Of a DNA stretch of 36,248 bases, positions 1 to 22,539 are shown one piece after another. The stretch lies in IMG/VR virus record IMGVR_UViG_3300042544_003106, positions 1-36,248 of that record; one strand, written 5' to 3'. The position numbers and the translations under genes are program-made. Under the pieces are notes generated by a model. It saw nothing but the letters and a program-made list of their open reading frames with translations. It made no database searches and was not told where the DNA came from. Source of the stretch: a virus. Each line of letters opens with the position of its first letter. Positions within the stretch are counted from its first letter, which is position 1.

Positions 1-104
1 TGGGCTACGTCCACAGCACCCCGGAGGTCTTCGTCATGGCCCGCCGGGTCGAGGCGGATTGGCAGGACGACCGCCTCTGCGACTTGCAATTCACCGCCCC
101 CGCC
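1..104. repeat. Terminal repeat, copy at window start
   Basis: These 104 bases are identical to 36140-36243 at the other end of the window. One reading frame runs through the join without interruption, so the simplest reading is a circular genome of about 36,139 bp cut at an arbitrary point, with the overlap left by assembly. A true short terminal repeat, as in T7, is less likely because the repeat lies wholly inside a gene. Confidence 0.9.
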
Positions 105-257
105 GGCGACTGCTGGCACGTCTGGCTCCTCGCCGGCGACTTCCGCGCCGCCATGGCTTTCCTCCCCTACCCCTTGCCCTACGTCAGCTTCCACCGCCGC
201 GGCCGGCTCCGCGTCATGCCTCTTGACCGCGCCCTCCGCCTGACAAATTCACGGTAG
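1..257 (+). CDS. Hypothetical phage protein, 3' part of a gene that wraps around the end
   Basis: This is the C-terminal 85 codons of a gene whose ATG is at 36034. The joined protein is about 120 residues. It lies directly between the large terminase group and the portal group. It is a small soluble protein with no signal peptide or membrane segment. The C-terminal half is rich in aromatic and hydrophobic residues (CWHVWLLAGDF, then PYVSFHRRGRLRV). I do not recognise a family. Small proteins at this spot are common in portal-Bbp19 type podoviruses, but the function is unknown. Its TAG stop at 255-257 lies inside the late-promoter-like motif, so the stop and the next transcription start are fused. 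Confidence 0.75.
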   Translation, partial: GYVHSTPEVFVMARRVEADWQDDRLCDLQFTAPAGDCWHVWLLAGDFRAAMAFLPYPLPYVSFHRRGRLRVMPLDRALRLTNSR

Positions 258-259
258 AA
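241..259 (+). promoter_or_regulatory. Late promoter-like motif, copy 1
   Basis: The sequence TGACAAATTCACGGTAGAA is almost repeated at 20441-20459, and its core recurs at 4049-4066. All three copies precede a late gene group on the plus strand. This copy lies 33 bases before the small gene at 292 and overlaps the end of the previous gene. A TGACA box and a TAGAAC box are visible but only about 9-10 bases apart, which is too close for an ordinary sigma-70 promoter. It may need a phage or host activator. Confidence 0.6.
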
Positions 260-291
260 CCACCCCGGCCCGGCCCGCACCATGCCCGGCC

Positions 292-492
292 ATGGGAAGT
301 TCGCCGAAGCCGCCGCCACCCGCCCCTCCGCCGCCGCCCACTCCCACCGCGGGCGATGCCGCGGAAGGCGCCGACCGTCTGGCGGAAGACCTCCGCAAGC
401 GCCGCCGCACCACCGCCGGCAGCTTCCTCGCTGGCGAAACCAGCACCACCACCGGCGGAGGCACTCCCGGCGGCAAATCCTACCTCGGATGA
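292..492 (+). CDS. Small proline-rich protein preceding the portal
   Basis: This protein of 66 residues starts MGSSPKPPPPAPPPPP, continues with a basic patch (RKRRRT), and ends in a Gly/Thr-rich tail finishing in YLG. Short proteins of this design (poly-proline N-terminus, RRR patch, Gly/Thr-rich C-terminus) commonly sit just before the portal in podoviruses. Their role is not established, but a minor virion or head-assembly role is likely. Its TGA overlaps the portal ATG as ATGA at 489-492, so the two are probably translationally coupled. It is the first gene after the late promoter-like motif. A longer portal reading from 282 would cover the same DNA in another frame and looks non-coding there. 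Confidence 0.75.
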   Translation: MGSSPKPPPPAPPPPPTPTAGDAAEGADRLAEDLRKRRRTTAGSFLAGETSTTTGGGTPGGKSYLG

Positions 493-2997: not shown

Positions 2998-3978
2998 ATG
3001 ACCACCGAAGCCCCTGCCGCTCCACCCGTCGCCGCGGATCCCGCGGCACCCGCGCCCGCTCCGGCGGCCCCCTCCGCTCCACCCGCCGCCGCGCCCACCC
3101 CGGCCGGCAGCTTCCTCGGCGATGGCTCTTCAGCCGCGCCGACTTCACCCCCGCCCGCGGATCCCGGCAATTTCTTCGACCCCCGCTTCCAGGACGGCGG
3201 CAAGTTCAAGGAAGGCTGGGCGGAAGGCCTCAAGGCCAAGGGTCTCGAACGCCTCGCCAACAAGGCCGTCCTCGCCAAGGACGAAGGCACCTTCCTCCGC
3301 TCCCTCGACGAGGCCCTCGGCATGGTCGGCAAGAAGGCCATCCCCGGCTACCCCGGCCCCGAGGCCGACGAAGGCACCGTCGCCGAATTCCGCCGTGCCG
3401 CCGGCGTCCCGGACGAGCCCGCCGGCTACGAGTTGAAGCCCTCCGACGTCCCGCCCGGCGTCCTCTTTGACGAAACCGCCGCCGGGGAGTTCGCCCAGGT
3501 CATGCACCGGCACCACATCCCCGCCGCCGCGGCGAAAGAACTGGCCGCCATTCACATCAAGCAGGCCGCCGCCCAGAACAACCACGCCACCGACACCTTC
3601 GAGTCCACCATCAACTCCCTCGCCGAGAAATCCGCCGAGATCTTCGGCAAGGAGTGGGGCGAAGGCGCCGCCGATCGCCAGCAAGCGAACAAGGACTTCG
3701 TCAAGATGCGCGGCTTCGACACCAAGGACCCGCTCATCCGCGCCGCCCTCTCCCATCCGGAGATCGTCCGGGTGATCGACGAAGCCCGGCGCGCCCTCCG
3801 CGAGTCCCCGCTCCCCGGCGTGCCGAATGAAGTCTTCACCGGCTCCGGCTCCCCGCGCCAGCAGGCCTTCGCCATCATGCAGGCGGATCGGAACTGGAAG
3901 AAGGACCCCGCCAAGGTTTCCAAGATCCAGCAGCTCCACGCCCTCCAGGCCCAGCAGGAAACGCGCGGCAAAAAGTAA
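2998..3978 (+). CDS. Putative capsid scaffolding protein
   Basis: This protein of 326 residues has a 55-residue Ala/Pro low-complexity N-terminus, a helical, charged middle, and a basic, helical C-terminus ending in KK. That architecture and the position directly before the major capsid gene are typical of podoviral scaffolding proteins, which direct procapsid assembly and leave before DNA fills the head. The segment around GVPDEPAGYELKPSDVPPG is a common landmark in scaffold-like proteins of this group. The start follows CCACATC rather than a Shine-Dalgarno. A rho-independent terminator lies 35 bases after the stop and closes this transcription unit before the capsid. Confidence 0.8.
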   Translation: MTTEAPAAPPVAADPAAPAPAPAAPSAPPAAAPTPAGSFLGDGSSAAPTSPPPADPGNFFDPRFQDGGKFKEGWAEGLKAKGLERLANKAVLAKDEGTFLRSLDEALGMVGKKAIPGYPGPEADEGTVAEFRRAAGVPDEPAGYELKPSDVPPGVLFDETAAGEFAQVMHRHHIPAAAAKELAAIHIKQAAAQNNHATDTFESTINSLAEKSAEIFGKEWGEGAADRQQANKDFVKMRGFDTKDPLIRAALSHPEIVRVIDEARRALRESPLPGVPNEVFTGSGSPRQQAFAIMQADRNWKKDPAKVSKIQQLHALQAQQETRGKK

Positions 3979-8915: not shown

Positions 8916-9374
8916 ATGAGCACCGCCCTCACCGATCCCGTCACCATCGACGAGTTCGAGGCCTCGCTCCTCGGCCACCCGCCCATGGACAGCCAGGTCT
9001 TCAACCACTTCCCGCCCGGCCTCTACGTCCGGGAGTGCCACTTCGCGGCCGGCACCCTCGGCACCTCCGTCATCCACAACGTCACCCACCCCTTCTTCCT
9101 CGCCCGCGGCACCGTCGAGGTGATCTCCGAGAACGAAGGCCCCGTCACCTACCGCGCCCCCCACTTCGGCTTCACCCTCCCCGGCACCCGCCGCGTCCTC
9201 CGCGCCCTGGAAGACACCGTCTGGATCACCGTCCACGCCAACCCCGACGACGGCCAGGACGTCGAATCCATCGTCCGCCGCGTCACCGCGGACCATAAGA
9301 ATCCGTTCCTACCACCGGGCACCGAGCCCGCCTGGAAACTCAACAACTCCACCCCCTTCCCCTTACTGCCATGA
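8916..9374 (+). CDS. Cupin-like phage protein
   Basis: This protein of 152 residues shows the pattern of a small double-stranded beta-helix (cupin/RmlC-like) domain: GLYVRECHFAAGTLGTSVIH, HPFFLARGTVEVIS, then FTLPGTRRVLRALED and a VWITVH strand. Cupin-like proteins of this type occur beside the nozzle and internal virion genes in many podoviruses. The function is unknown; a structural rather than enzymatic role is likely, but His residues sit where a cupin would hold metal. The start is six bases after the nozzle stop, and its TGA overlaps the next ATG. Confidence 0.7.
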   Translation: MSTALTDPVTIDEFEASLLGHPPMDSQVFNHFPPGLYVRECHFAAGTLGTSVIHNVTHPFFLARGTVEVISENEGPVTYRAPHFGFTLPGTRRVLRALEDTVWITVHANPDDGQDVESIVRRVTADHKNPFLPPGTEPAWKLNNSTPFPLLP

Positions 9375-9868
9375 GCATGTGGGTCATTGGTATCTCCACC
9401 GTCGTTTCCCTCGCCGGCACCGCCGTCTCCGTCTACGCCCAGAATCAGGCCGCCGACGCCGCGGAGACCACCGCCATGCTCAATGCCAACGAGCAGAAGA
9501 AGCAGGCCAACCGCGAGGCGGAAGTCGCCGCCGAGAACGCCCGCCGCGCGGAGCGCGAAAAGACCCGCTACCTCGCCAGCCAGCGCGCCCAGCTCGCCGC
9601 CTCCGGCCTCGCCATGGAGGGCACCCCCATCGCCGTCCTCGGCGATACCGCGCAGGCCCTCGAGCTTCAGATCCTCGACATGGGCAGCGAGGCCGCCAAC
9701 CGCATGCGCGCCCTCCGCCAAGGTGCCGCCCTCTCCGTCTACGAGGGCCAAGCCACCGCATCTTCCCTCCGCACCCAATCCATCGCCACCGGGCTTTCAG
9801 GCACCAGCTCCGCCATCATGAGCGGAGCCAAGGCCGGCGGGTTTCTAGCACCATCCTCCGAAAAGTAA
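9371..9868 (+). CDS. Putative internal virion protein (T7 gp14-like)
   Basis: This protein of 165 residues has an N-terminal hydrophobic segment (WVIGISTVVSLAGTAVSVYA) and then a long Ala/Glu/Arg-rich helix with coiled-coil character. This is the design of the small ejection protein that forms the outer-membrane part of the T7-type DNA channel. GLAMEGTPIAVLGDTA and the helix after it are typical of these proteins. It opens a block of three virion-ejection type genes (this one, 9873 and 11611), which matches the gp14-gp15-gp16 order of T7. Confidence 0.72.
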   Translation: MSMWVIGISTVVSLAGTAVSVYAQNQAADAAETTAMLNANEQKKQANREAEVAAENARRAEREKTRYLASQRAQLAASGLAMEGTPIAVLGDTAQALELQILDMGSEAANRMRALRQGAALSVYEGQATASSLRTQSIATGLSGTSSAIMSGAKAGGFLAPSSEK

Positions 9869-9872
9869 GACC

Positions 9873-11570
9873 ATGGATCCCGTACCCCGCATGAAGTTCA
9901 TCGATGCCGGCCCCATGGCCCCGCTCGGCAGCGCCCAGCCCGCCATCTCCCAGGCGAATGCCGCGGCCCGCCTTGGCCAGGCCATCTCCAGCATCGGCGA
10001 CAGGGGCTTCCAGATCGCCGAAAAGGTCCGGCGCACCACGGAGGCCGGCAAGATGTCCGCCTTCATGGCCAACCTCGACGAGGAAGCCAACCGCTTCTCC
10101 CTCGACCTCACCAAGCGCCCGGATCCCGAAGGCTGGGTCGATGACTGGGCTGCCCGTCAGGAAGACTTCAAGCGCCAGGCCTCCGACCTCGGCCTCTCCC
10201 GCGAAGCCCAGGCCGCCCTCGACATCGAACTCAACGACTGGAACTCCCAGCGCGGCATCCGCTTCGAGACCCAGGCCTTCACCCGCATGACCATGGAGGG
10301 AAAGGCCCGCATCTCCAACTCCATCCAATACCACGCCAGCCGGGGCGATGCCGATGGCGTCCGCCGCGAATCCTCCCGCATGCGCGAGGCCGGCTTCGAG
10401 GAATCCGAGATCGAGCAGGTCGAGCGCGAGGCCGATCGCATCGCCGCCGTCGCCGATGTCCAGCGCCAAGTCGCCGCGGATCCCGTCGGCATGCTGCCAA
10501 AGCTCCGCGACCCGGAATTCGTCAAGAACACCCCCGGCATCACCCTCGCCGATGCCGACCGCCTCGAGCAGCAGGCCCGCACCCTCCACCGCACCCAGAC
10601 CTACGACATCATCGAGCAGGCGAACAACGCCATGGCCGACGGCTCCATCTCCTCCCCGGAGCAGATCGACCAACGCTTCAAGGGCAAGGCCAGCCCCGCC
10701 CTCCTCGAGCGCATGAAGGCCGACCTGTCCGAGCGCAAGACCGCCGAAGAAACCGCCCGCCGCTCCACCCCGGAGTATGTCAACGAGGTCACCGGCTACG
10801 TCACCGCCCAGCTCGATTCCTACAATGCCGAGATGGACGACTTCGACGAAGTCTTCTACTCCCTCGACCGCTCCATCCGCACCCTTCCGGATGGCATCGA
10901 GAAAGCCCGCCTCACCGATCGCCTCGCCCGCGCCCGCAAGGGCCAGCTCGAAGAATGGACCGAGGCCGCCGACGAGACCCGCGCCAAGCTCCGCGACGCC
11001 TACAAAGGCGGAGCCTTCGGCGAAGGCACCTCCCGCAAGTCCGCCGCCGAAATCATGACCGCCGGCCTCCTCCAGGACCGCATCAAGCTCCAGGCCCGCG
11101 GCTTCTCCGCCGACCAGGCCGAGGACATCGCCACCCAGAAGGATTCCTACAAGGCCCTCCTCAAGTTCCGCGAACTCGCCAAGGAGGTGGAAGGCTTCGA
11201 CTACACCGAAGGCTTCGACAAGGACGCCTTCGACCTCCTCGCCGCGGGCAAGGCCGGCTTCATCGAATACCCCGACCCCGCCGGCATCGCCAAGGCCAAT
11301 GCCGCCTACGGCAAGGCCGTGAGCGAATTCGAGAAATGGCACAAGGTCCACCCCAAGGCCACCGAGGAACAGCGCGAGACCAAGTTCCGCCAGCTCCTCA
11401 GCCCCGAAGGCCTCAAGAAGTTCCAGTCCGCCATCCTCCCCCCCGCCGACTTCATCGACGTCCCGGAACCAAACTCCGCCGGCAAGTATGGCATGGACGG
11501 CAACGCCGGTCTCCCCGCCTGGGGCGATGGCTCCGGCGGCGACCTCCTCCCACCTCCTCCCGAACAATAA
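9873..11570 (+). CDS. Putative internal virion protein (T7 gp15-like)
   Basis: This protein of 565 residues is almost entirely helical and highly charged, with no signal peptide or membrane segment. Size, composition and place between a small hydrophobic ejection protein and a giant protein fit the middle ejection protein of short-tailed phages, which builds the periplasmic part of the DNA conduit. Segments such as ERLTRxxDPExWxxDW-type (here TKRPDPEGWVDDWAARQ) and an Ala/Asp-rich repeat region are common in such proteins. The C-terminus is Gly/Pro-rich. The assignment rests on context and composition rather than an active-site motif. Confidence 0.7.
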   Translation: MDPVPRMKFIDAGPMAPLGSAQPAISQANAAARLGQAISSIGDRGFQIAEKVRRTTEAGKMSAFMANLDEEANRFSLDLTKRPDPEGWVDDWAARQEDFKRQASDLGLSREAQAALDIELNDWNSQRGIRFETQAFTRMTMEGKARISNSIQYHASRGDADGVRRESSRMREAGFEESEIEQVEREADRIAAVADVQRQVAADPVGMLPKLRDPEFVKNTPGITLADADRLEQQARTLHRTQTYDIIEQANNAMADGSISSPEQIDQRFKGKASPALLERMKADLSERKTAEETARRSTPEYVNEVTGYVTAQLDSYNAEMDDFDEVFYSLDRSIRTLPDGIEKARLTDRLARARKGQLEEWTEAADETRAKLRDAYKGGAFGEGTSRKSAAEIMTAGLLQDRIKLQARGFSADQAEDIATQKDSYKALLKFRELAKEVEGFDYTEGFDKDAFDLLAAGKAGFIEYPDPAGIAKANAAYGKAVSEFEKWHKVHPKATEEQRETKFRQLLSPEGLKKFQSAILPPADFIDVPEPNSAGKYGMDGNAGLPAWGDGSGGDLLPPPPEQ

Positions 11571-11610: not shown

Positions 11611-14600
11611 ATGTATTCCCTCACCTCCGGCATCCCGCAGTCCGCCGCCAATCCCCTCATCGGCCTCCTCACCGGCGACGACGAGCGCCAGGCCAAGGAA
11701 AACGCCTGGCGTCTCAAGGCCACCGATGCCCTCGACCAGGCCGTCCTCGACTACGATGGCTTCATCAAGGGCAAGCCCGCCCCGCCCCTCGACTTCGCCG
11801 CGGACCCCGAGACCGCCCGCAAGCAGGGCATCGTCGCCAGCTACCTCCAGATCCAAGCCGGCGGCCGTCCCATCTCCACCGATCCCGTCCAGCTCTCCAT
11901 CCTCCGCGACCGCGTCGCCGACCAGCAGTTCTCCGGCCGCGGCAAGGGCGATGACCTCGCCTTCTACGGGGAGATCGAGAAGGAGACCATCGCCCGCAAG
12001 CAGACCCTCGACCTCGCCCATGAGATGCAGTCCGCCGCCACCACCGGCGCGCTTCTCCGCGAGACCTCAGATGCCGGCTTGGATTCCAAGTCTTTCCAAC
12101 TCTGGCGGGAAGAAGCCAAGACCAAGCCCGGCTACCAGCCCGGCATGGACTACGCCTACATGGAGGCCTGGCGCGACACCCAGAAGGCCCTCCGCCAGAA
12201 CGTCGAGCCCTACCTTGGCCCGCTCAAGCAAGTCTGGAACTCCATGCAGTCCGGCGGGGCCAACTGGTACGATGCCTGGGAACAAGTCCCCGCGGAAAAC
12301 CGCGAGCAGTTCATGGCCTCCCTCGCCATTCTGGCCCGCGCCCTCCCCGCCGACAAGCAACCCGCTTTCTGGAGCAACCTCACCACCCAAGCCCAGCGCG
12401 ACATCCAAGGCCAAGCCATCAACGTGATGGAAGGCTTGAGCACCGCCCTCGATGAAGGCGGAATGTTCAACTACCCACTCAATGACCCAGCCGAGACGCC
12501 GGAGCAAACAATCGCCAGAGAAGCCTCCACCGCGGAAAACCGCTCCCGCAAAAACTTCATCGCCGACGTCGAGCGAATCCGCAACGAGACCTACGACCCC
12601 GTCAAGGTCCTCAACCCCGACTCCGCCATCCTCCGCACCCTGGAGCGCGGAGCCTACGCCGTCCCCGGCGTTGTTGCCACCAGTGCCGTCGCCCTTGTCC
12701 CCTTCGCCGGCCCCGCCGCCACCTACTACCACATGGAGGAAAGCGCCTATCGCGACATGCGCCGGACCCTCATGGATGGCGGCATGTCAGATGCAGATGC
12801 CTCTGACACCGCCGAAGGCCTCGCCCCCATCATCGCCATCCCCCAGGCCCTCCTTGAGCGCATCGGAGCCGGAGCCCTGATCGGCAAGGTCCCCGGCCTC
12901 GAAAAGGTGCTCGCCGCCACCACCAACCGCATCACCTCCACCGCCGGCCGCTACGCCGCCCGCACCGCAGCCATTGCCGGCTTCGAGACCGCCATCGAGA
13001 ACACCCAGGACCTCATCCCCGCCCTCTTGCAGGATGCCGCCAGCGCCCTCGAGAAGGACATCCCCGGCGTCGTCTGGAAGAACGGCAAGGACGGCTTCTT
13101 CGACGGCTACTGGGAAAAGACCGCCACCACCGCCGTCGCCATCCTTCCCCTCGCCCTCATCGGCGGCGCCGGCGGCATCTCCGCCGAAGGCCGCGCCCGT
13201 GCCTTTGCCGAAGCTCCTGACCTCCACCTCCGCGTCCTCGGCATCTCTCCGGATGGCGTCGCCCGCATCCGCGAAGCCCAGTCCCAAGGCCGCTTCCAAG
13301 CCGAGCAGGCCATCGAGGCCGAACTCGCCACCCGCGATCCCCGCAGCGAGGACGCCATGGACGCTACCCAGGAACTCGCCGAGACCCTTCAAGCGGAAAA
13401 GCAAGCCGCCGCCGCCGCTTCCGACAACGGCATCATGCCCCGCGCCGTCCGCGGCACCGATGGCACCTGGACCCTCTACGACACCGCCACCGGCCGCGAG
13501 ATCGGCCAGGCCCCCGACTGGCAGCGCGCCGCCCAGCTCGCCACCACCCACGCCAATTTCTCCGCCGACCAGGACGCCGACCGCATCGCCCTCGTCTTCT
13601 CCACCTACCAAGCCGCCGAAGTCTCCGGCCAATGGGGCACCGACACCAACCGCCCCACCGAGATCAACCTCGACCTCGGCCGCCAGCTCACCGCCCAGCA
13701 AGCCGCCACCGAGTCCTCCAGCGCCCGCGAGCGCGTCGCCGCCCAGGAGCGCCTCATGGGAGGCGATGGCAGCGTCACCAACGTCGTCCTCGGCCAATCC
13801 CGCACCGAACTCGCCCAAGGCCAGCTCCGCACCGTCAACCGCATCCTCGAAGGCGGCAGCGTCCTCGACGTCTTCCACGAAGAAACCCACGGCTTCCGCC
13901 GCCAGGCCCACGCCCGCGGCATCCTCACCCGCGAGGACGACATCGCCTTCGTCACTGCCGTCAATACCGTCCTCCAAGGTCAGACCACCCGCGAAGGCCA
14001 GTCCCTCCAGCTCCTCCCCGACAACTTCGACACTCTTTCCGAGTCCGACCAGGAGACCGCCCTCGACGAAGCCATCTCCGCCATCGCCGAGGCCGAAGTC
14101 ATCCGCACCCGCAAGCCGGCGCAAGCCGGCCAAGAGGGGCGCGGGCGGCTCGCCCGCAGCCTCCCCGCCGGCCTCGTCAGCAACAACCTCTCCGCCCTCG
14201 CCCGCCTCCTCGGCGACCGCACCCTCGGCAAGTTCCGCAGCTTCATCAATGCCATCCGCGAATACTTCGGCCTCGCCATCGATCGCGCCGCCCAGATCCA
14301 GCGCGGCCTCGCCGACGGCACCCTGGACCAAGCCACCTACGAGGGATATTTGACCAAGCTCCTCGGCGTGGACGAGCAGATCGACTACGACCAGATGGCC
14401 CGCGATGCCGAGTCCGCTATCCTCGACGGGGCCGAACTCGCCCCGGCCATGGCCGGCGATCCGTTCAGCCTCGGCCGGCGCACCACCGTCACCCCGAACG
14501 CTTCCACCCGTGCCTTCCCCGGCGCGGAAGGTTCGCCCTCCGTCATCGGCCCGGCATCCTTCTCCATCCGCGCCCACCACGGCACCCCGCACAAGGTGGA

Positions 14601-17600
14601 CCGCTTCTCCACCGGGAAGATCGGCACCGGCGAAGGTGCCCAGGCCTACGGCTGGGGGCTGTATTTTGCGGAAGCGGAAGAAGTCGCCAAGGAATACCAA
14701 GGGATGCACGCCGATCCTCTTGAGAAGTCCGGCTATTACGACCGCAACATCGCCGCCCTCGACAATCACCTCCAGCGAGTTCCAACCGATGAATACGCCA
14801 AGGCGCAGCGGGACAACATGGCAGAGCAAAAACGCCAAGCCCAGCTTCGCTCCGGCAACCTCTACACCGTCACCCTCAAGCTCGAAGACGACCAGCTCCT
14901 CGACTGGGACAAGCCCTTGAGCGAGCAGCCGGAGGCCGTGCGGTCGGCACTGGCAAATTATCGTCCAAGCAGCATTCCAGAAGGCCGGACACTGGAAAGC
15001 ATGGACGGCAAATTTCTCTATCGGATGGCCCTTGGAGATTTGGCAGATTCAAGTGGACCTGATGCAGCAGCAAAAGCTGCTTCAGCATTGTTTGCATCCC
15101 GCGGCATCCGCGGCATCCGCTTCCTCGATGGCAACAGCCGCGGCAAAGCTGCCGCCAGCATTTTCCAACAAGAGGGCCGCTGGAACGTCATTTACAATGA
15201 CCCTGCCAACGGACTGGCAATCCGCACAGACACGTTTGACACTGAAGCGGAGGCCAAGGCATTGGTCGAAGCCCTGCCAGGCTCCTACAACTACGTCATC
15301 TTCGACGACGCCGACATCGAGATCCTCGAAGAGAACGGCCAACCGGTTACACTGACCAACCGATCCACCGACTCACCGGCATTCTCCCTCGGCTCCCGCC
15401 CCGGCCTCCCTCAAACCGCGGCCAACATCATCGCGCTTGCCAAGGAATTGGATCCGGAAGGATTCAAGACCGCCGCCGCCGATGCCGCTGCCTACGTCAA
15501 ACGCCGCGAGGCGGAAGGCATCCCGCTCGGGCCTGTTCTGGCCGGCGACCAGATCACGCTGGCCGCGCAGGGCGTGCTCGTCAAATTCGCCGACAAAGAC
15601 CCCCGTGCCATGGCCATGCTCGCCGGCTACGGCGCGGACCAGTTCTCCTTCTCCATCGCCCCCAGCCGGCTCCGCATCAAACCTCCGAAGGGCGTCACGG
15701 CCATCCGCACCGATAGCCTGCCGGTGTGGGACATCGAGCAGGACAAGGCGACCAGCCTGCCCAAAGTGCTGAACACCCCGGCCGCCCGCGCCAAGTTCTT
15801 CGCGCGGCTGGACGAGGCTCTCGAGTATCTGCGGGCAGACCCCGCGCGGATCACCACCGGCCCCGGCTGGGTCAAGTTCCTGCGGATGGCCGGCATCTAC
15901 GGCAAGGTCCCCATGCCTCCCAGCGGCCTGACGGAAATCATCAACGATCCGGCGGCCTACGTCGCCAAGCTCAACGGCGAGTATCACGGCGAGCGCACCA
16001 TCGACTCGACGCAGGAAAGCGCCCGGCAAGGCCTGGACGGAACCCGGGAAATGCGGGAGATCATCGGCGAAGGCCAGGCGCCAGCACCTTGGGCGGTCGC
16101 CCTGCATCACCTGTGGGGCGTCCTTTCGCGGATGTTGCCACCCCTCCAGCAGGAAGGCATGTGGTTGCGCTTGATCGCCCACCGGCCCGTGCTCGATGCC
16201 ATCCAGTCGTCGATTGACGGCACATTCGACATGGGTCTTGCCGATTGGGAGCAAGTCGTCAGCGCCGCGCGGGAGGAATCAGCACAAGACGCCGGCCAGG
16301 TCGGGAACAGCGCCACGGCCAACGCCAATTCGTTCTTCCTCATGCTCCGCAACCTCAACGGTCGCTGGCAGGACGCCGCGGATGTCTACGCGGCCCCGAC
16401 CTCCCGCGAGATGGGCCGGCGGTTCTGGGCGCTCGATGCTGGTGCCCTCGGCATCAAGAACAAGGTGCAGCGGTTCATCGGCCTTACCTTCGGCGTGCCC
16501 GGTGTCATCATGGACCGCTGGAAATTCGTGGAGTTCTGGCTGCCCACTGCCATGGAAGGCACCGGCGCGGAAACCACCTCCGACTTCTTCCGCTACGGCC
16601 AGAACACCCCTTCGGATCCCACCGGCATCTATGGCGTCTACGGTCAGGTGGATTCGGACAACCCGGCCTTGTCCCTGGCGATGTATGAGGCCTTCGAGGT
16701 GGTCCTCCAGGAAGCCATCAACAAGTCACCCGAACTCCAGTCCCACCTGGGCGACCACGCCAACCCGGGTGGCATGCACTGGCACGGCTGGAATGCGATC
16801 AAGAACGAAGCTGTCGGGCACAGTTCCCTCGACCTGACAAAGGATCTTCAACGCGCCTTTGGCGTTGCCATCACGGCCGAAGACGTCCACAATACCCTTC
16901 GCAATGGAAGCTACTTCACCGAAGGGGCCGAGACCCAGCAGTCCAACCTCAAAGTCACCCTCGAGCGCGGAAAAATTCGTCTCGAAAGGACCGGCATGGC
17001 CGGCGGACTTCAGCCAGGACCTGCCGGAATTCTCGGACAAGGAGCTGGCCGAAGCGCTGGCCGAAGCGGACAGCAAGCCGCGGAAGTAGCCCCCGCCTTC
17101 TCCCTCGGCTCCCGCCGCCTCGGCGTCCTCACCCAGGATTCCATCCGCCGCATCCAGAACCCACTCCGCCGCGCGCAGGCCATGGAGCGCGTCTCCCGCA
17201 AGCTCGAGGAACTCCGCCTCGAGGCCGAGCGCCTCGAACTCCTCTCCGGCACCAAGCGCCTCAAGCGCAGCCTCGCCCGCGAAGCCGCCATCCGCCAGGC
17301 CCTCCGCCGGGAGGAACTCGAAAACGAAGCCTGGGCACGCCACGCCGCCATCCTCTCCGATGACGACCTGACCAAGCTCCGCGGCCAGCCCCTCCACTCC
17401 TTCTTCGGCGATCCCTCCAGCCCCCTCCGCGGCCGGCTCATGAGCAAGACCGCCGCCGTCAAGAAGCACCCCGACCTCTTCACCCTCCACAATCCCGGCG
17501 ACTACGATGGCTCCGAGTCCGTCTCCCGCACCGTCTTCGGCGGAGACCTCGCCCCCGACCAAGCCGCGCAGGAAGCATTCGACGCCGGCCTCCTCCGCGA

Positions 17601-20379
17601 ACCCACCACCGATGCCCTCTGGCAGGCCCTCGAATCCGAGTCCCGCCACGTCGCCAGCATGAAGAAGGTCCTGGAATCCGCCAAGGCCGACCTCCGCGAA
17701 GCCCGCACCGTCGCCAAGGCCGAGACCAATGCCTGGCTCGCCACCCAGACCGACCAGCAGGCCGCCACCTACTCCCCCCGCCAGGAGATCCTCCGCAGCC
17801 TCGCCGCCCTGGATGCCATCCTCTCCTCCGTCCCCGCCGAGATCCGCGGCAAGGTCGGCGGCTGGGTCCAGGCCGCCCGCATCGCCGACCCCGATGCCGG
17901 CCTGCAGTTCCTCCGCGAGCGCCTCGCCAAGGTGGACGTCGAGCTGGAGAAATACCTCAAGTCCCAATACAACCTCGAATTCCTTGCCCTCCTCGACCGC
18001 GCCCGCCCCGAGAAGGACGAGGCCGGCAAGCGCCCCCGCGGCAAGATCGGCGCCGACGTCCACAGCCTCTTCGCCGACCTCCGCGAGGCCATGACCCTCA
18101 CCGCCGCCGAGACCGAGGCCGAGGCCACCCGGCTCGAGATCCTCGCCGAGCAGGAAGACCTCACCCCCGAGCAGCAGGCCCACGCTATGCTCCAAGCGAA
18201 CCTCGTCCGCCTCGTTGGCGACTGGCCCCGCGCCAGCGCCGCCCGCCGGGAAGCCGCCGTGCTCGAAGCCACCCGCGTCTTCGAATCCGGCTACATGGCC
18301 GAAAAGATCCGCATGTCCCGCCAGCGCGAAGACCGTGCCAAGAAGCGCACCAACCTCGCCGCCGCCACTGGCAAGGCCGGCACCCGCGAAGAACGCCGCG
18401 ACCGTGCCCAGCGCGACGAAGGCACCCGCACCGGCCGCGTCCTCAAGGCCGGCCTCTCCCTCATGTCCTTCGAGCAAGTCGTCCAGAAGGCCTTCGGCGA
18501 AGGCACCCCGGACGCCGAGGCCCTGGTCGATTGGGAACGCCGCGCCGCCCACGCCAAGGCGGATGCCCTCCAGAACAAGCTCGACCTCCTCGACGATCTC
18601 TTTGCCTCCCTCGCCGGCGGCAAGCTCAAAGGCGAACAGCTCCGCTTCGAAATGTCCAACGCCAAGGGCATCACCGCCACCGATGCCAAAGGCCGCGAGC
18701 ACACCTTCAGCCAGCTCGAGGCCATCACCGCCACCCTCATGTGGCGGCAGGAAGACGGCCGCCGCCACATGGAAGGCCACGTCGATGACCAAGGCGCACC
18801 CGCCGGGGAATGGAACTACACCCAGGACTTCGTCGATCAGCTCGAGGACCAGCTCACCGACAACGCCAAAGCCATCCGCCTCCACCTCGCCGCCCAATAC
18901 GGTGCCGAATACGAGCGCCTCAACAGCGTCTTCCGTCAGCTCTACGGCGTCTCCCTCCCCCGCCACGCCCACTACTCCCCCCTCACCGTCAAGCCCGCCC
19001 AGGCTGGCGCTGGCCAGACCCTCGACCCCGTCACCGGCTCCACCATGACCGGCGCAGGCCTCACCCCTGGCAGCCTCAAGACCCGCTCCCAGACCGCCAT
19101 CGCCGAGCCTGATTTCCGGGATGCCCTCCAGACCTACATCGGCCACTCCAAGCAGATGGAACACTGGATCGCCTACGCCCCCTTCGCCACCGAGGCCATG
19201 GCCCTCATCAATGCCCGCAACGTCGGCAACTCCGTCGAAGCCGCCGCCGGCAAGGAAACCCTCCAGACCCTCCGCGGCTGGCTCGACGTCTTCGCCCAGG
19301 GCGGCACCCGCGACGCCGCCGCCCACCTCGCCGCCAACCAACTCATGGGCCGCATGGTCGGCCGCGCCGCCGCCGTCGCCCTGGTCGGCCGCGTCTCCGT
19401 CCTCGCCATCCAGTCCACCCAGCTCGGCGCCGCCCTCGCCGAGATGCCCGCCGCCGCCTACATCACCCGCTTGGCCAAGCTCTTCGCCGGCCGCCTCGAC
19501 TGGGGTCCGGCCCTCCGCAGCGACTACATCCAGCGCCGCAAGGCCACCATGCCGCCCGTCGTCCAGCAGGCCCTCGAAGGTCTCAGCAGCTCCAAGCCCA
19601 GCCGCCTCAAATACCTCGCCCGCAAGATGGGGGAAACCATCTCCGGCGCGGATGCCATCTTCACCGCCGGCACCTACGCCATCGCCTACGACTACCACCT
19701 CAAGCAAGCCCAGCAGATCGGAGTGGCCGATCCCCACGCCTACGCCCGCCAGGCCGCCGAACGCTCCACCGATCGCGTCGCCCAGCCCGTCCGCCCCGGC
19801 ACCCGCTCCCTCTACGAGGTCACCGGCACCAATCCCGCCGTCCGCATCGTCTGGAGCTTCGCGTCGGATGCCCGGCAAAAGCTCATGCTTTCCGCCTACG
19901 CCCTCGGCTCCAAGAAGTCGAAGGGAGCCAAGGCCCGCGCCCTGGCCGTCACCTGGCTCGCCGGTGGCCTCGTCGCCTCCGTCATCCGCGCCACCATGCG
20001 GGACCTCCGCGATGACGATGACGACGAGTTCTTCGACGAAAAGAACTGGGATCCCAAGCGCCTCGCCCTCGCCTCCCTCACCGGCCCCTTCGGCGGCCTG
20101 CCCTTCCTCGGCGATGCGCTCGAGGCCACCGCCTTCGGCCTCGCCGGGGAATACCTCCCCGATGGCAACCTCTTCTCCAACGCCCCCAAGGCCGTCGAGC
20201 GCTCCGCCGATCTCCTCATGGGAGACCACCCCGAGGACCTCGAGGAAGCCGCCAAGGATGCCGAAACCATCCTCTCCGGCGCCGGTCTCTTCTCCGACTC
20301 CGCTGCCGCCACCGCCAGCTTCTCCCACCTCATCCGCGACCTCATCGCCATCGCCGAGAACTTCACCGGCACCGACTGA
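11611..20379 (+). CDS. Giant polyvalent virion protein with metallopeptidase-like and ADP-ribosyltransferase-like modules
   Basis: The open frame has 2,922 codons, a quarter of the genome. By size and place it is the largest ejection protein (T7 gp16 position), and its domain mix is that of phage polyvalent proteins injected with the DNA. Modules in order: a helical N-terminus with hydrophobic segments near 351 and 511; HEETH at 756-760; an ADP-ribosyltransferase-like module (HGTP 990-993, GWGLYFAE 1014-1021, YNYVIFDDAD from 1226); a second unnamed domain around MDRW 1634-1637; a charged coiled-coil region; and a C-terminal part with a hydrophobic segment near 2777 resembling large polyvalent-protein-associated domains such as LPD38. 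FSLG(S/R)R linkers occur at 952, 1258 and 1830. Codons about 1789-1826 appear to be read in the wrong frame (see 16971-17089), so the true product may be two proteins. Confidence 0.8.
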   Translation: MYSLTSGIPQSAANPLIGLLTGDDERQAKENAWRLKATDALDQAVLDYDGFIKGKPAPPLDFAADPETARKQGIVASYLQIQAGGRPISTDPVQLSILRDRVADQQFSGRGKGDDLAFYGEIEKETIARKQTLDLAHEMQSAATTGALLRETSDAGLDSKSFQLWREEAKTKPGYQPGMDYAYMEAWRDTQKALRQNVEPYLGPLKQVWNSMQSGGANWYDAWEQVPAENREQFMASLAILARALPADKQPAFWSNLTTQAQRDIQGQAINVMEGLSTALDEGGMFNYPLNDPAETPEQTIAREASTAENRSRKNFIADVERIRNETYDPVKVLNPDSAILRTLERGAYAVPGVVATSAVALVPFAGPAATYYHMEESAYRDMRRTLMDGGMSDADASDTAEGLAPIIAIPQALLERIGAGALIGKVPGLEKVLAATTNRITSTAGRYAARTAAIAGFETAIENTQDLIPALLQDAASALEKDIPGVVWKNGKDGFFDGYWEKTATTAVAILPLALIGGAGGISAEGRARAFAEAPDLHLRVLGISPDGVARIREAQSQGRFQAEQAIEAELATRDPRSEDAMDATQELAETLQAEKQAAAAASDNGIMPRAVRGTDGTWTLYDTATGREIGQAPDWQRAAQLATTHANFSADQDADRIALVFSTYQAAEVSGQWGTDTNRPTEINLDLGRQLTAQQAATESSSARERVAAQERLMGGDGSVTNVVLGQSRTELAQGQLRTVNRILEGGSVLDVFHEETHGFRRQAHARGILTREDDIAFVTAVNTVLQGQTTREGQSLQLLPDNFDTLSESDQETALDEAISAIAEAEVIRTRKPAQAGQEGRGRLARSLPAGLVSNNLSALARLLGDRTLGKFRSFINAIREYFGLAIDRAAQIQRGLADGTLDQATYEGYLTKLLGVDEQIDYDQMARDAESAILDGAELAPAMAGDPFSLGRRTTVTPNASTRAFPGAEGSPSVIGPASFSIRAHHGTPHKVDRFSTGKIGTGEGAQAYGWGLYFAEAEEVAKEYQGMHADPLEKSGYYDRNIAALDNHLQRVPTDEYAKAQRDNMAEQKRQAQLRSGNLYTVTLKLEDDQLLDWDKPLSEQPEAVRSALANYRPSSIPEGRTLESMDGKFLYRMALGDLADSSGPDAAAKAASALFASRGIRGIRFLDGNSRGKAAASIFQQEGRWNVIYNDPANGLAIRTDTFDTEAEAKALVEALPGSYNYVIFDDADIEILEENGQPVTLTNRSTDSPAFSLGSRPGLPQTAANIIALAKELDPEGFKTAAADAAAYVKRREAEGIPLGPVLAGDQITLAAQGVLVKFADKDPRAMAMLAGYGADQFSFSIAPSRLRIKPPKGVTAIRTDSLPVWDIEQDKATSLPKVLNTPAARAKFFARLDEALEYLRADPARITTGPGWVKFLRMAGIYGKVPMPPSGLTEIINDPAAYVAKLNGEYHGERTIDSTQESARQGLDGTREMREIIGEGQAPAPWAVALHHLWGVLSRMLPPLQQEGMWLRLIAHRPVLDAIQSSIDGTFDMGLADWEQVVSAAREESAQDAGQVGNSATANANSFFLMLRNLNGRWQDAADVYAAPTSREMGRRFWALDAGALGIKNKVQRFIGLTFGVPGVIMDRWKFVEFWLPTAMEGTGAETTSDFFRYGQNTPSDPTGIYGVYGQVDSDNPALSLAMYEAFEVVLQEAINKSPELQSHLGDHANPGGMHWHGWNAIKNEAVGHSSLDLTKDLQRAFGVAITAEDVHNTLRNGSYFTEGAETQQSNLKVTLERGKIRLERTGMAGGLQPGPAGILGQGAGRSAGRSGQQAAEVAPAFSLGSRRLGVLTQDSIRRIQNPLRRAQAMERVSRKLEELRLEAERLELLSGTKRLKRSLAREAAIRQALRREELENEAWARHAAILSDDDLTKLRGQPLHSFFGDPSSPLRGRLMSKTAAVKKHPDLFTLHNPGDYDGSESVSRTVFGGDLAPDQAAQEAFDAGLLREPTTDALWQALESESRHVASMKKVLESAKADLREARTVAKAETNAWLATQTDQQAATYSPRQEILRSLAALDAILSSVPAEIRGKVGGWVQAARIADPDAGLQFLRERLAKVDVELEKYLKSQYNLEFLALLDRARPEKDEAGKRPRGKIGADVHSLFADLREAMTLTAAETEAEATRLEILAEQEDLTPEQQAHAMLQANLVRLVGDWPRASAARREAAVLEATRVFESGYMAEKIRMSRQREDRAKKRTNLAAATGKAGTREERRDRAQRDEGTRTGRVLKAGLSLMSFEQVVQKAFGEGTPDAEALVDWERRAAHAKADALQNKLDLLDDLFASLAGGKLKGEQLRFEMSNAKGITATDAKGREHTFSQLEAITATLMWRQEDGRRHMEGHVDDQGAPAGEWNYTQDFVDQLEDQLTDNAKAIRLHLAAQYGAEYERLNSVFRQLYGVSLPRHAHYSPLTVKPAQAGAGQTLDPVTGSTMTGAGLTPGSLKTRSQTAIAEPDFRDALQTYIGHSKQMEHWIAYAPFATEAMALINARNVGNSVEAAAGKETLQTLRGWLDVFAQGGTRDAAAHLAANQLMGRMVGRAAAVALVGRVSVLAIQSTQLGAALAEMPAAAYITRLAKLFAGRLDWGPALRSDYIQRRKATMPPVVQQALEGLSSSKPSRLKYLARKMGETISGADAIFTAGTYAIAYDYHLKQAQQIGVADPHAYARQAAERSTDRVAQPVRPGTRSLYEVTGTNPAVRIVWSFASDARQKLMLSAYALGSKKSKGAKARALAVTWLAGGLVASVIRATMRDLRDDDDDEFFDEKNWDPKRLALASLTGPFGGLPFLGDALEATAFGLAGEYLPDGNLFSNAPKAVERSADLLMGDHPEDLEEAAKDAETILSGAGLFSDSAAATASFSHLIRDLIAIAENFTGTD
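13876..13890 (+). other. HEETH metallopeptidase-like motif in the giant protein
   Basis: Residues 756-760 read HEETH, within SVLDVFHEETHGFRRQA. HExxH is the zinc-binding motif of zincin metallopeptidases, and the hydrophobic residues before it and the Gly after it fit that fold. Zincin domains are known in polyvalent proteins. A third zinc ligand is not obvious, so activity is not proven. Confidence 0.6.
14135..14160. repeat. REP-like palindromic repeat inside the giant gene, copy 1
   Basis: This 26-base element is identical to 20391-20416. Its core is the palindrome GCGGGCG-GCT-CGCCCGC (14141-14157). It is read in frame as EGRGRLARS within the giant protein. Just before it, GCAAGCCGGC is repeated twice in tandem (14111-14130). 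Confidence 0.8.
14560..15340 (+). other. ADP-ribosyltransferase-like module of the giant protein
   Basis: This module has the three usual landmarks of the ART-PolyVal group: an HGTP box, a G-x-GEGAQAYGWGLYFAE box, and a later strand with NYVIFDDADIEIL. Such domains transfer ADP-ribose from NAD+ to a target and would act in the host cytoplasm after injection. From about 14930 to 15380 base use is less GC-skewed than in the rest of the gene (many cat, gca, ttt, tat codons), which suggests the module came from elsewhere. Confidence 0.75.
16971..17089 (+). other. Segment of the giant gene whose real frame is +1, ending in TAG
   Basis: After the A5 run at 16971-16975 the annotated frame reads as low-GC3 nonsense (GPAGILGQGAGRSAGRSGQQ). 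The +1 frame has almost pure G/C third positions and a sensible acidic helix (DLPEFSDKELAEALAEADSK) that ends at TAG 17087-17089. The annotated frame becomes convincing again right after that, at APAFSLGSR. Either one A is extra, or ribosomes slip here, or a domain cassette with its own stop was fused in. If split, the second protein could start at ATG 17182. Confidence 0.7.
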
Positions 20380-20390
20380 CCAAAGCAAAC

Positions 20391-20416
20391 AGGGGCGCGG
20401 GCGGCTCGCCCGCAGC
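20391..20416. repeat. REP-like palindromic repeat after the giant gene, copy 2
   Basis: This copy is identical over 26 bases to 14135-14160 and lies 12 bases after the giant gene's stop. The palindrome is at 20397-20413. It could stabilise or end the transcript, but no T-run follows. Similar GCGGGCG...CGCCCGC elements are common dispersed repeats in some bacterial chromosomes, so a host origin is possible. Confidence 0.75.
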
Positions 20417-20493: not shown

Positions 20494-22539
20494 ATGGCGA
20501 TTTCTTCCCAAACCACCTCCGTCTCCTACACCGGGAACGCCTCCACCGTCACCCCCTACCCCGTCACCTTCCGCTATGACGAGGCCGCCTGGGTCACCGT
20601 GCAGGAGATCGACGAAGACGGCGCGGTCACCACCCTTGCCCTCGGCACCGACTACACCCTCACCGGCACCGGCTCCACCACCACCGGGAACGTCGTCACC
20701 TCCGGCGGGGCCATCCCTGCCACCAGCACTCTCCGCATCTCCCGGGACACCGCCCTCACCCAGACCGTCTCCCTCGCCGTCAATGGCGTCCTGCCTTCCT
20801 CCGTCATCGAGGCCGAGTTCGACAAGCTCACCATGGCGCAGCTCGACCAGAAGCGCCGCCAGGCCGCCGGCGATGCCCGTTCCCTCCGCGTCCCCGATGG
20901 CGAGACTGCCACCGAACTCCCCGCCGCCACCCTCCGCGCCGGCGAAGTCCTCTTCTTCAACGCCACCACCGGCGCCGTCGAGACCAAGACCCCCGACGAG
21001 ATCCTCGCCCTCTCCGGCGGCGCGCCCGACGGCATCGGCATCCCCGCCGGCGGCACCACCGGCCAGGCCCTCACCAAATCCAGCGGTACCGACTTCGACG
21101 TCGCCTGGACCGACACCGTCACCGCCGCCACCGTCATCCCCGTCCTCACCGCCAACGCCGCGTCAGCCCGCGCCGCCATCTCCGCCCCGAGCATCGCCGG
21201 AGCCGGCATCGTCGATTCCGCCGCCTTCCGCAGCGTCCTCGACCTTACCCCCTTCCAACGCTCCGGCGGGGCCGCCGCCATCCACGCCGCTCTCAAAGCC
21301 AACCGCTCTTGTGGCATCGCCGTCGTCGGCGACTCCACCGGCAACGGCACCGACGAATGGGTCTATCTCCTCGCTGACCACATCGCCGACCAGGCTCCCA
21401 GTCACAAGGTCGTCCACCGTGTCTGGTCCGGCTCCGCTTGGACCTCCACCACGATCCAGGATCCCGGCAACGGCGAACGCCGCTACAATCACCCCGCGAG
21501 CGGCGGACTGTCCGCCAGCTTCGGAGCGGCCGATCTTGTCCACGCCGGGCCTGATCTGGTCATCGAGGCGAAAATCAACGCGGCCAGCTACGTGGCGATG
21601 CTAGGCAAAACCATCGCCCAACAATGGGGCACCGTCCCGAACCGAAGTTGGAAATTGAGCATGGGCACCAACACGCTCTGGTTAAACTGGTATGAGGATG
21701 ACGGAACCACGCTCCGCGCCCCTGCCGTCTCGTCCGCCATCCCGTTTGTAAACGGCACGCCCATGTGGGTCCGCGTCTTCCTCGACGTGGACAACGGATC
21801 GAGCCAATACGCCGTGACCTACTACTATTCGGCGGACGGCATCACATGGACCGCCGCAGGGACGGCAACCGGGGCAACCGGCGTGACGACCCTCAACCCG
21901 TCCACGGCTGACATCGAAATCCTTTCCTCCGCATTTACCAGCGGTTCGGTGAGTGCCCTTGTCATCCGCAGCTCTTTGACCGGCCCGAGCGAGAATAACA
22001 TCGCCATCGACAACGCGTGGCGTGGAGCGGTAAGCAACGACGAGTTGACTCTAACGGGTGATCCGGTCTTGAGGATCGACAACATGAGTGTCACCGGCTG
22101 GGCCAGCTCGAACGCCACCCAGGCCCAACTCAACAACATCGACCATCACGGGACGCTGTTAGCTTTCATATCCCTAAGTCACAACGAGGGATTTGCAGGC
22201 GGACCAGTGGGCCGGACCTGGACCAATGGCATCAAGGCCATCGCCGACATCCTGCAAGCCCGCTGTCCGATGGCCCAAATAGTCATCGTCGGGCAAAACC
22301 CGGAAGCCGTGTTCTCGACCATCGACCAATATCAGGTGGACGGCCACGCACTCCGCATCGCCCAGCTTGCCAGTTTCGCCGCCAAGGAAGGCTACGGTTT
22401 CCTCAATTTCTTCCAGGCATTCCACGACAGTGGCAGCGCCATCCTCGACCTTGTCCCGGACGGCATCCACCCCGCCGGAGCAGGAACGGCCCTTATGGTC
22501 GATACCGCGGCCGACGGCTACGACCAAGCCCGATTCTGA
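20494..22539 (+). CDS. Tail fibre or tailspike with SGNH hydrolase domain
   Basis: This protein of 681 residues binds and probably modifies the host surface. The N-terminal 165 residues resemble the T7 tail-fibre attachment region (SYTGNASTVTPYPVTFRYDE, then SVIEAEFDKLTMAQLDQKRR). The C-terminal part carries SGNH hydrolase blocks: GDST with the nucleophile Ser281, N564 in SHNEG, and the Asp-His pair D656/H659 in DGIHP. Residues about 335-530 sit between blocks I and III and look like an inserted beta-sandwich carbohydrate-binding domain (YYYSADGITWTAAG). Such enzymes usually remove acetyl groups from surface glycans. Base composition shifts from about 21540 onward, suggesting an exchanged receptor-binding module. 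The start at 20494 is preferred over 20483, which is out of frame. Confidence 0.85.
   Translation: MAISSQTTSVSYTGNASTVTPYPVTFRYDEAAWVTVQEIDEDGAVTTLALGTDYTLTGTGSTTTGNVVTSGGAIPATSTLRISRDTALTQTVSLAVNGVLPSSVIEAEFDKLTMAQLDQKRRQAAGDARSLRVPDGETATELPAATLRAGEVLFFNATTGAVETKTPDEILALSGGAPDGIGIPAGGTTGQALTKSSGTDFDVAWTDTVTAATVIPVLTANAASARAAISAPSIAGAGIVDSAAFRSVLDLTPFQRSGGAAAIHAALKANRSCGIAVVGDSTGNGTDEWVYLLADHIADQAPSHKVVHRVWSGSAWTSTTIQDPGNGERRYNHPASGGLSASFGAADLVHAGPDLVIEAKINAASYVAMLGKTIAQQWGTVPNRSWKLSMGTNTLWLNWYEDDGTTLRAPAVSSAIPFVNGTPMWVRVFLDVDNGSSQYAVTYYYSADGITWTAAGTATGATGVTTLNPSTADIEILSSAFTSGSVSALVIRSSLTGPSENNIAIDNAWRGAVSNDELTLTGDPVLRIDNMSVTGWASSNATQAQLNNIDHHGTLLAFISLSHNEGFAGGPVGRTWTNGIKAIADILQARCPMAQIVIVGQNPEAVFSTIDQYQVDGHALRIAQLASFAAKEGYGFLNFFQAFHDSGSAILDLVPDGIHPAGAGTALMVDTAADGYDQARF

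What the first reader, a model, noticed from the sequence alone, without database searches (positions are those of the whole stretch)
11611..20379. A quarter of the genome is one mosaic polyvalent protein carrying peptidase-like and ADP-ribosyltransferase-like modules
The frame has 2,922 codons at the place of the largest ejection protein. It contains HEETH, a full ART-type set (HGTP, GWGLYFAE, YVIFDDAD), an unnamed domain around MDRW, coiled coils and a membrane-like C-terminus. Polyvalent proteins are known mainly from mobile elements and large phages. One in a 36-kb podovirus, apparently injected with the DNA, would be a compact toolkit for disabling host defences or reprogramming the host at entry. 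Domains are seen in the sequence; injection and targets are inferred.
Basis: partly seen in the sequence, partly recalled or inferred. Interest (0 to 1): 0.8.

Follow-up and report, generated by a model that had tools for sequence, protein, structure and literature searches.

The report
Phage ejection protein with swappable cassettes
A small phage carries one giant protein, probably shot into the bacterium with its DNA, in which swappable enzyme cassettes (one an ADP-ribosyltransferase) sit between copies of a short signature peptide that is shared within a phage lineage and differs between lineages; what reads that peptide is unknown.

Summary
The 2,922-codon frame is real, is 24.2% of the record and lies at the T7 gp16 position. 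Residues 984-1257 are an ART-PolyVal-type ADP-ribosyltransferase (25 of 25 aligned sequences, window included, match the Pfam family; best structural match: ART region of the cyanophage A-4L pre-ejectosome). The parent idea (polyvalent proteins, zincin hub, ART) was published in 2017, so that part is ordinary. What looks new is the internal rule. Residues 952-1829 are an insertion with foreign codon usage. A relative from Verrucomicrobiaceae strain E54 lacks it: its two backbone halves meet at a single FSLG. In 58 of 61 family proteins the cassette region holds one or more copies of [FY]S[ILVM], far denser than elsewhere; alignment borders cluster at them. The peptide's exact form is a lineage trait, and copies are not DNA duplicates. 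Some other giant proteins use other peptides (LFQ, RFQP, F[ML]PA, RFAV) alike. I infer a recognition site, most likely for proteolytic release of cassettes; no cutting has been seen. The in-protein zincin cannot be the general reader: HExxH is kept in only 11 of 55 aligned relatives.

The parts
11611..20379 (+). whole gene of the 2,922-aa polyvalent ejection protein
   Evidence: gp16 position by neighbours
11611..14463 (+). N-terminal backbone, residues 1-951, including the zincin-like region (about 600-951)
   Evidence: conserved in L005, L006, L015, L011 and L171
13876..13890 (+). HEETH, residues 756-760, zincin-type site
   Evidence: column aligned over 55 relatives, HExxH kept in 11
14464..14475 (+). 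junction peptide 1, FSLG (residue 952): start of the insertion, followed by a 32-residue spacer to residue 983
14560..14571 (+). junction peptide 2, FSIR (residue 984): start of the ART cassette
14560..15381 (+). ADP-ribosyltransferase cassette, residues 984-1257
   Evidence: Pfam ART-PolyVal 25 of 25 members, window included; AlphaFold pLDDT 86.8; VIA Z 11.0 to 9k3a_B
15382..15393 (+). junction peptide 3, FSLG (residue 1258)
15382..15648 (+). short cassette of unknown kind, residues 1258-1346
   Evidence: between two junction peptides; no match in the 43 other proteins searched
15649..15660 (+). junction peptide 4, FSIA (residue 1347)
15649..17097 (+). MDRW cassette, residues 1347-1829, function unknown
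   Evidence: same module in L005, L006, L105, L148; Pfam: nothing for the window at E<=1, one E 0.25 hit in one of five members
17098..17109 (+). junction peptide 5, FSLG (residue 1830): end of the insertion
17098..20376 (+). C-terminal backbone, residues 1830-2922
   Evidence: conserved family; residues 2341-2922 used as profile A3
9371..9868 (+). gp14-type internal virion protein
   Evidence: phrog_418 E 1.7e-16; Pfam T7_gp14 E 0.0058, below cut-off
9873..11570 (+). 565-aa protein at the gp15 position
   Evidence: position only; no family found
20494..22539 (+). tail fibre
   Evidence: phrog_1640 at residues 1-115 and phrog_15641

Best explanation
It is a polyvalent ejection protein of a T7-like podovirus, probably of Verrucomicrobiota. 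Two conserved backbone parts (1-951 and 1830-2922) do the virion work; between them lies an array of exchangeable effector cassettes (here ART, an 89-residue piece and the MDRW module). SHOWN by sequence: cassettes are inserted at one socket; junctions carry a short peptide [FY]-S-[ILV]; its dialect (residue before it, F or Y, residue after it) is a trait of the phage lineage and applies to unrelated cassettes; copies are kept at protein level. INFERRED: the protein is packed in the head and ejected with the DNA; the ART then modifies host proteins. INFERRED, less sure: the junction peptide is a recognition site, most likely cut by a protease acting in trans (host enzyme or an unrecognised phage enzyme), which frees the cassettes during or after entry.
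For: Density of [FY]S[ILVM] in the cassette region is 4.33 per 1,000 aa against 0.72-0.99 for the five permuted class orders there, 0.36 in the N and 0.75 in the C backbone (60 proteins). Pairwise alignment starts (n 1065) and ends (n 1433) fall within 10 aa of a motif in 36.6% and 39.1%, against 9.9% and 9.8% for random places; five control motifs give 1.0-8.5% for starts (alignments among relatives are not independent). L171 (strain E54) aligns as 38-960 to window 21-955 and 957-2049 to 1830-2920, meeting at one FSLG. Codon usage changes at about residues 960 and 1850. Serine codons of the copies are mixed (TCN and AGY) in 36 of 47 proteins with three or more motifs, 34.3 expected for independent codons. 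Pfam domains follow motifs in relatives: PRTase (below cut-off), RadC, LPD3, ART; ART, methyltransferase, DUF7178 after LFQ or MFQ in phage LS06-2018-MD07. Peptides flanking the ART agree within a protein more than after swapping partners, also outside this family (22 others: mean 15.73 against 10.27, permutation P about 0.0005). Information is confined to positions -1 to +3, in a G/S/T/N/D/P-rich stretch. Precedent for cutting: phage P1 DdrB, a polyvalent protein, is processed before packaging according to Iyer et al.. ART.
Against: No cleavage was seen; none of the data are biochemical. The zincin has HExxH in only 11 of 55 aligned relatives and is wholly lost in 14, of which all but two (L137, L097) have motifs. 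Peptidase S78, ClpP and S49 families were absent from 24 of 24 phage records. N4 vRNAP, a giant polyvalent ejection protein, is packaged unprocessed according to Iyer et al.. The A-4L ejection protein with its ART has no [FY]S[ILVM] at all. De novo over-represented tripeptides did not single out aromatic ones (12 of 42 proteins against 10 of 42), and the anchor test was modest (256 against 189.7 +- 23.6 for random segments, whose largest of 200 was 260). Dialect agreement within a protein is no greater than with close relatives, so it is shared descent as well as sharing within a chain. The window's own peptides around the ART score only 12 in the swap test. Three of 61 family members have no motif in the region as I cut it; one of these (L134) has one just outside. 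At least 10 of 232 motif hits lie inside the ART fold and are not junctions. Foldseek found no PDB hit at E<=0.001 for the ART model.
Confidence: 0.5

Rival explanations
1. Docking peptide: each [FY]S[ILV] binds a pocket of a partner (gp15-type tube, portal or the backbone) and spaces the cassettes for packing and threading; it is not cut.
For: Short hydrophobic core in a G/S/T/N/D/P-rich stretch; dialect is a lineage trait as expected for a co-evolving partner; none of three phage protease families found. In a T7 model gp16 segments stitch gp15 together (passage in PMC8954989).
Against: The peptide also sits at the single junction of the cassette-free protein, and in other giants the position is filled by unlike peptides such as LFQ, which a conserved tube pocket does not predict easily.
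Confidence: 0.25
2. Recombination scar: the junction peptide is only the stretch at which cassettes recombine and has no reader.
For: Alignment borders cluster at it; foreign codon usage inside the insertion.
Against: Copies use mixed serine codons at the rate of independent codons, and one peptide dialect spans unrelated cassettes within a lineage, so amino acids rather than DNA are kept.
Confidence: 0.15
3. Self-processing polyprotein: the embedded zincin cuts the junctions, as proposed in general by Iyer et al. 2017.
For: Window has HEETH; the 2017 paper predicts zincin processing.
Against: HExxH kept in 11 of 55; wholly lost in 14, 12 of which keep motifs. Could hold only in lineages with an intact site, such as the window's.
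Confidence: 0.1

Closest known systems
Polyvalent proteins of phages and conjugative elements (Iyer et al. 2017, PMC5512222)
   Same: Giant multidomain phage protein near virion genes, zincin-like and ART domains; relatives carry RadC, PRTase, LPD3
   Different: In the passages and sections I saw no repeated junction peptide is described; 'linker', 'boundar' and 'interdomain' occur 0 times, 'junction' only as Holliday junction. Here a lineage-specific peptide marks junctions and the zincin site is often lost
Anabaena phage A-4L ejection protein (A4L_27, PDB 9k3a chain B)
   Same: Podovirus of about 42 kb, gp16 position, ART-like fold near the C-terminus, solved in a pre-ejectosome
   Different: 1,717 aa; no [FY]S[ILVM] anywhere in it; its structure paper was not held
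T7 gp16
   Same: Place in the genome after gp14- and gp15-position genes, before the tail fibre (T7 order recalled)
   Different: No family match links the two; no lytic transglycosylase among the matches listed for the giant
N4 virion RNA polymerase (gp50)
   Same: Giant ejected multidomain protein with an HExxH domain and flexible linkers (passages of PMC12633501)
   Different: Carries an RNA polymerase; reported packaged unprocessed
VENN / pretoxin junctions of polymorphic toxins (recalled, no call)
   Same: A short peptide marks where effector modules are exchanged
   Different: There one C-terminal exchange point; here several junctions per protein

Membership tests
ART-PolyVal (Pfam PF18760) | profile match | tested here: inconclusive
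   Window itself 20.8-22.7 bits, below the cut-off of 31.2; but 25 of 25 aligned members, window included, match at E<=0.01, best 3.7e-8
ART-PolyVal (Pfam PF18760) | ART fold | tested here: met
   AlphaFold pLDDT 86.8; VIA Z 11.0 to 9k3a_B, then tankyrase, MbcT, PARPs, ParT at Z 6.7-7.8, a range the tool calls middling and that also holds an unrelated FIS1 row; 29 hits E<=0.001 in BFVD, several named ART-PolyVal; Foldseek PDB none at E<=0.001
ART-PolyVal (Pfam PF18760) | H-Y-D active site | tested here: met
   H990 and Y1018 in invariant columns of 25; third residue D1232 or D1233 in FDD, not settled
ART-PolyVal (Pfam PF18760) | NAD-dependent transfer | not testable with these tools
   no assay
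Polyvalent protein | several unrelated enzymatic domains in one polypeptide of a mobile element | tested here: met
   zincin-type HEETH plus ART here; RadC, PRTase, LPD3 in relatives
Polyvalent protein | encoded beside virion genes and delivered on invasion | tested here: inconclusive
   beside virion genes: yes; delivery not testable here
Zincin-like metallopeptidase | HExxH in a zincin fold with a third ligand | tested here: inconclusive
   HEETH at 756; no Pfam zincin match at E<=1; fold and third ligand not tested
T7 gp16-type ejection protein | position in the ejection block | tested here: met
T7 gp16-type ejection protein | presence in the virion | not testable with these tools
   no proteomics

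The most novel reading that the evidence does not exclude
Phage ejection proteins are true polyproteins: lineage-specific cleavage sites separate exchangeable effector cassettes, cassettes that arrive by recombination acquire the recipient's site, and one protease (of the host or still unrecognised) releases a set of effectors from one injected chain. The same rule with other sites (LFQ, RFQP, F[ML]PA, RFAV) holds across polyvalent proteins, so the sites can be used to cut unknown giant phage proteins into their effectors in silico.
Probability: 0.35. Interest if true: 0.85.

Novelty: new variant of a known kind. Interest (0 to 1): 0.62.

Why it matters
The 2017 paper proposed that giant polyvalent proteins are cut by their own zincins; no cutting sites were named in what I read of it. 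The junction peptide gives exact sites to look for by N-terminomics, gives a rule to find the borders of unknown effector domains (such as MDRW) in metagenomic phages, and argues against the embedded zincin as the general processing enzyme. A cassette-free relative lies in the assembly of a named strain, which may make an experimental host available.

Tried and rejected
Zincin as the general reader of the junctions: rejected, because HExxH is not kept in 44 of 55 aligned relatives and the site is wholly lost in 14, 12 of which keep motifs. Capsid-type proteases S78, ClpP, S49: none in 24 records; other protease families were not searched there. In the window, ten ORFs gave no protease family in Pfam; 2998-3978 has a weak PHROG 'protease' match (phrog_458, E 6.4e-5) below a better one of unknown function and I took it for the scaffold by position and composition, untested. 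DNA-level copying of the junction: not supported. De novo tripeptide search: not discriminating, 12 aromatic against 10 non-aromatic of 42. MDRW fold: the model from 5 sequences had pLDDT 46 and was not searched further; a likeness to DUF7178 or HhH-GPD proteins that I suspected was not tested. Solved relatives by sequence: none for the whole protein or the C-terminal profile, one chance-level hit at E 0.92 for the ART profile. GTDB scans: single-sequence query found nothing, closer profile A6 found 6 loci. Literature: ten searches listed no paper whose title or abstract start names such a junction peptide; one search listed nothing and nothing on phages. Of papers I saw: PMC5512222 abstract, passages and whole sections 9, 32, 34; passages only of PMC9503650, PMC12633501, PMC12810830, PMC8954989 and PMC10386132. 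The A-4L structure paper was not held. Limits: the motif was first seen in the window and the ART set and then tested on a family that includes some of those proteins; cassettes are defined by the motif itself except, which use independent borders. Rows dropped before counts: of 95 ORFs with the C-backbone 83 had 1,200 aa before it, and 60 remained after removing near-copies; 55 of the 60, those not cut at a contig start, entered the zincin alignment, the window not among them; 42 of 44 giants remained after removing near-copies and 38 of 42 had a recognisable ART end.

Full report
WHAT IS THERE. The frame 11611-20379 is a real gene of 2,922 codons, 24.2% of the record. Upstream are portal (phrog_332), major head protein (phrog_3437), tail-tube genes (phrog_394, phrog_376) and a gp14-type internal virion protein (phrog_418, E 1.7e-16); downstream is a tail fibre. 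The giant therefore sits where T7 has gp16 (T7 order recalled). It matches no PHROG at E<=0.01, and in Pfam at E<=1 only ART-PolyVal and a DUF7880, both below their cut-offs.

THE ART. The alignment of 25 ART sequences, window included (A4), keeps H990, Y1018 and the surrounding motifs; 25 of 25 members match Pfam ART-PolyVal at E<=0.01. AlphaFold gives pLDDT 86.8. Foldseek against the PDB finds nothing at E<=0.001. The VIA second look puts cyanophage A4 pre-ejectosome chain 9k3a_B first (Z 11.0, rmsd 4.0, 147 residues), followed by tankyrase, MbcT, PARPs and ParT at Z 6.7-7.8, with an unrelated FIS1 row among them. BFVD gives 29 matches at E<=0.001, several named ART-PolyVal. The A4L_27 protein of Anabaena phage A-4L matches 9k3a_B over all 1,717 residues and again lies at the gp16 position. 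So an ART-like fold inside a podovirus ejection protein has a solved precedent; that protein has no [FY]S[ILVM].

A CASSETTE INSERTION. Codon preference of residues 1-950 and 1860-2922 is mostly like that of the structural genes, while about 960-1860 differs (60-codon scores -0.50 to 0.46 inside, 0.22 to 0.99 outside; only one outside window is below 0.5). Near relative L005 has the ART and the 89-residue piece replaced by a different short segment; L006 has neither. L171, from Verrucomicrobiaceae strain E54 (its title lacks 'MAG', so I take it for an isolate), lacks the whole insertion: its residues 38-960 match window 21-955, and 957-2049 match 1830-2920, meeting at one GDPFSLG. In the window FSLG stands at both ends of the insertion (952, 1830) and FS[LI] at the inner borders (984, 1258, 1347). 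The MDRW module occurs as a cassette in four other proteins at 61-99% identity.

A FAMILY-WIDE RULE. The C-backbone profile (A3) found 182 stretches, 80 kept as 79 loci; 60 non-redundant proteins, and from then on the window as well, were analysed. In the cassette region of the 60, [FY]S[ILVM] occurs 223 times (4.33 per 1,000 aa); permuted orders of the same classes 0.72-0.99; N backbone 0.36; C backbone 0.75. At least 10 of 232 hits in the 61 proteins are inside the ART. Information is confined to -1..+3. A last motif lies 380-620 aa before the C-profile in 47 of 61; 3 of 61 have none in the region as cut, of which L134 has one just outside. Alignment starts and ends fall within 10 aa of a motif in 36.6% and 39.1% against 9.9% and 9.8% for random places; control motifs 1.0-8.5% for starts; these alignments are among relatives and not independent. 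Known domains follow motifs: L100 PRTase (below cut-off) and RadC, L157 LPD3.

DIALECTS. Within a protein, motifs agree more than shuffled ones at -1 (0.339 against 0.180 +- 0.018), F/Y (0.698 against 0.499 +- 0.026) and +3 (0.427 against 0.238 +- 0.020). This is a lineage trait, not one of the single chain: relatives with C-backbone identity of 60% or more agree at non-homologous junctions about as well as a protein does with itself; agreement fades at 50-60% and more at 30-50%. At the ART junction and the last junction F or Y is the same in 23 of 27 proteins (shuffled mean 13.5, largest of 5,000 is 23; shared descent is not removed). Copies use TCN and AGY serine codons mixed in 36 of 47 proteins (34.3 expected), so they are not recent DNA copies. 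Some giant proteins outside the family show other peptides at such places: LFQ or MFQ (LS06-2018-MD07), RFQP (L025), F[ML]P (L039, L071), RFA[V] (L053); these were picked by eye. The systematic test: peptides on the two sides of the ART agree within a protein beyond swapped partners in 22 non-family proteins (15.73 against 10.27; score of 18 or more in 6 of 22) and 16 family proteins (19.19 against 15.30; 12 of 16), P about 0.0005 each by 2,000 permutations. The window itself scores only 12 there. Two broader tests were weak.

HOW IT MAY WORK. Iyer et al. 2017 predicted that zincins in polyvalent proteins cut them, and cite P1 DdrB as cut and N4 vRNAP as packaged uncut. In this family the zincin site is HExxH in 11, xExxH in 21, HExxE in 5, xExxE in 4 and lost in 14 of 55 aligned proteins (the window, HEETH, is not among the 55); mean motif numbers per protein are 3.4-4.3 in all five groups. 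The zincin is therefore not the general reader, though it may act in the window's lineage. None of three phage protease families is in 24 records. I prefer a protease acting in trans on the junctions, about 0.4 by itself, because one lineage-wide reader of a 4-5 residue site at the borders explains dialect, spacing and the single site in the empty socket; docking to an ejectosome partner is the main rival. Cutting has not been observed.

HOST. Six GTDB loci encode the C-backbone: five in Verrucomicrobiota assemblies (three records titled Akkermansiaceae, from two MAGs; strain E54; REEB449) and one in an Acidobacteriia MAG. The window's host is likely Verrucomicrobiota; this is inference from relatives.

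VERDICT. Polyvalent ejection protein with an ART: a new member of a known kind. The lineage-specific junction peptide and cassette socket: a new variant that my ten literature searches did not show, and directly testable.

Noticed in passing
window 14136-14160 and 20392-20416: A perfect 25-base repeat that can form a hairpin occurs inside the zincin codons and again just after the stop codon of the giant; outside the window's own loci (L001, L002) an exact copy was found only in L004 (same phage) among 175 loci. L005 and L006 lack the extra residues it encodes.
   Followed up: partly
window 1-104 and 36140-36243: A 104-base perfect direct repeat at the record's ends: terminal repeat or assembly overlap of a circular or permuted genome.
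   Followed up: no
L027, L116, L157 and others, zincin column: Zincin-type site replaced by RDFSQ, REFAQ and similar, or by HExxE and xExxE, in many relatives: perhaps pseudo-peptidases.
   Followed up: partly
L100 residues 1394-1480 and 1834-1891; L157 residues 1445-1552: PRTase (below cut-off), RadC and LPD3 cassettes in the same socket of related phages.
   Followed up: no
L053 residues 1368, 1547, 1715: Repeated FDPESPDIRF[AS]V at the end of successive modules; I recall similar NPDIRFS ends from many prophage proteins (recall, not tested).
   Followed up: no
L008 4918-6078 (Sulfitobacter phage phiGT1): The same ART family in a 387-aa protein among head genes, without the junction peptide before it.
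   Followed up: no
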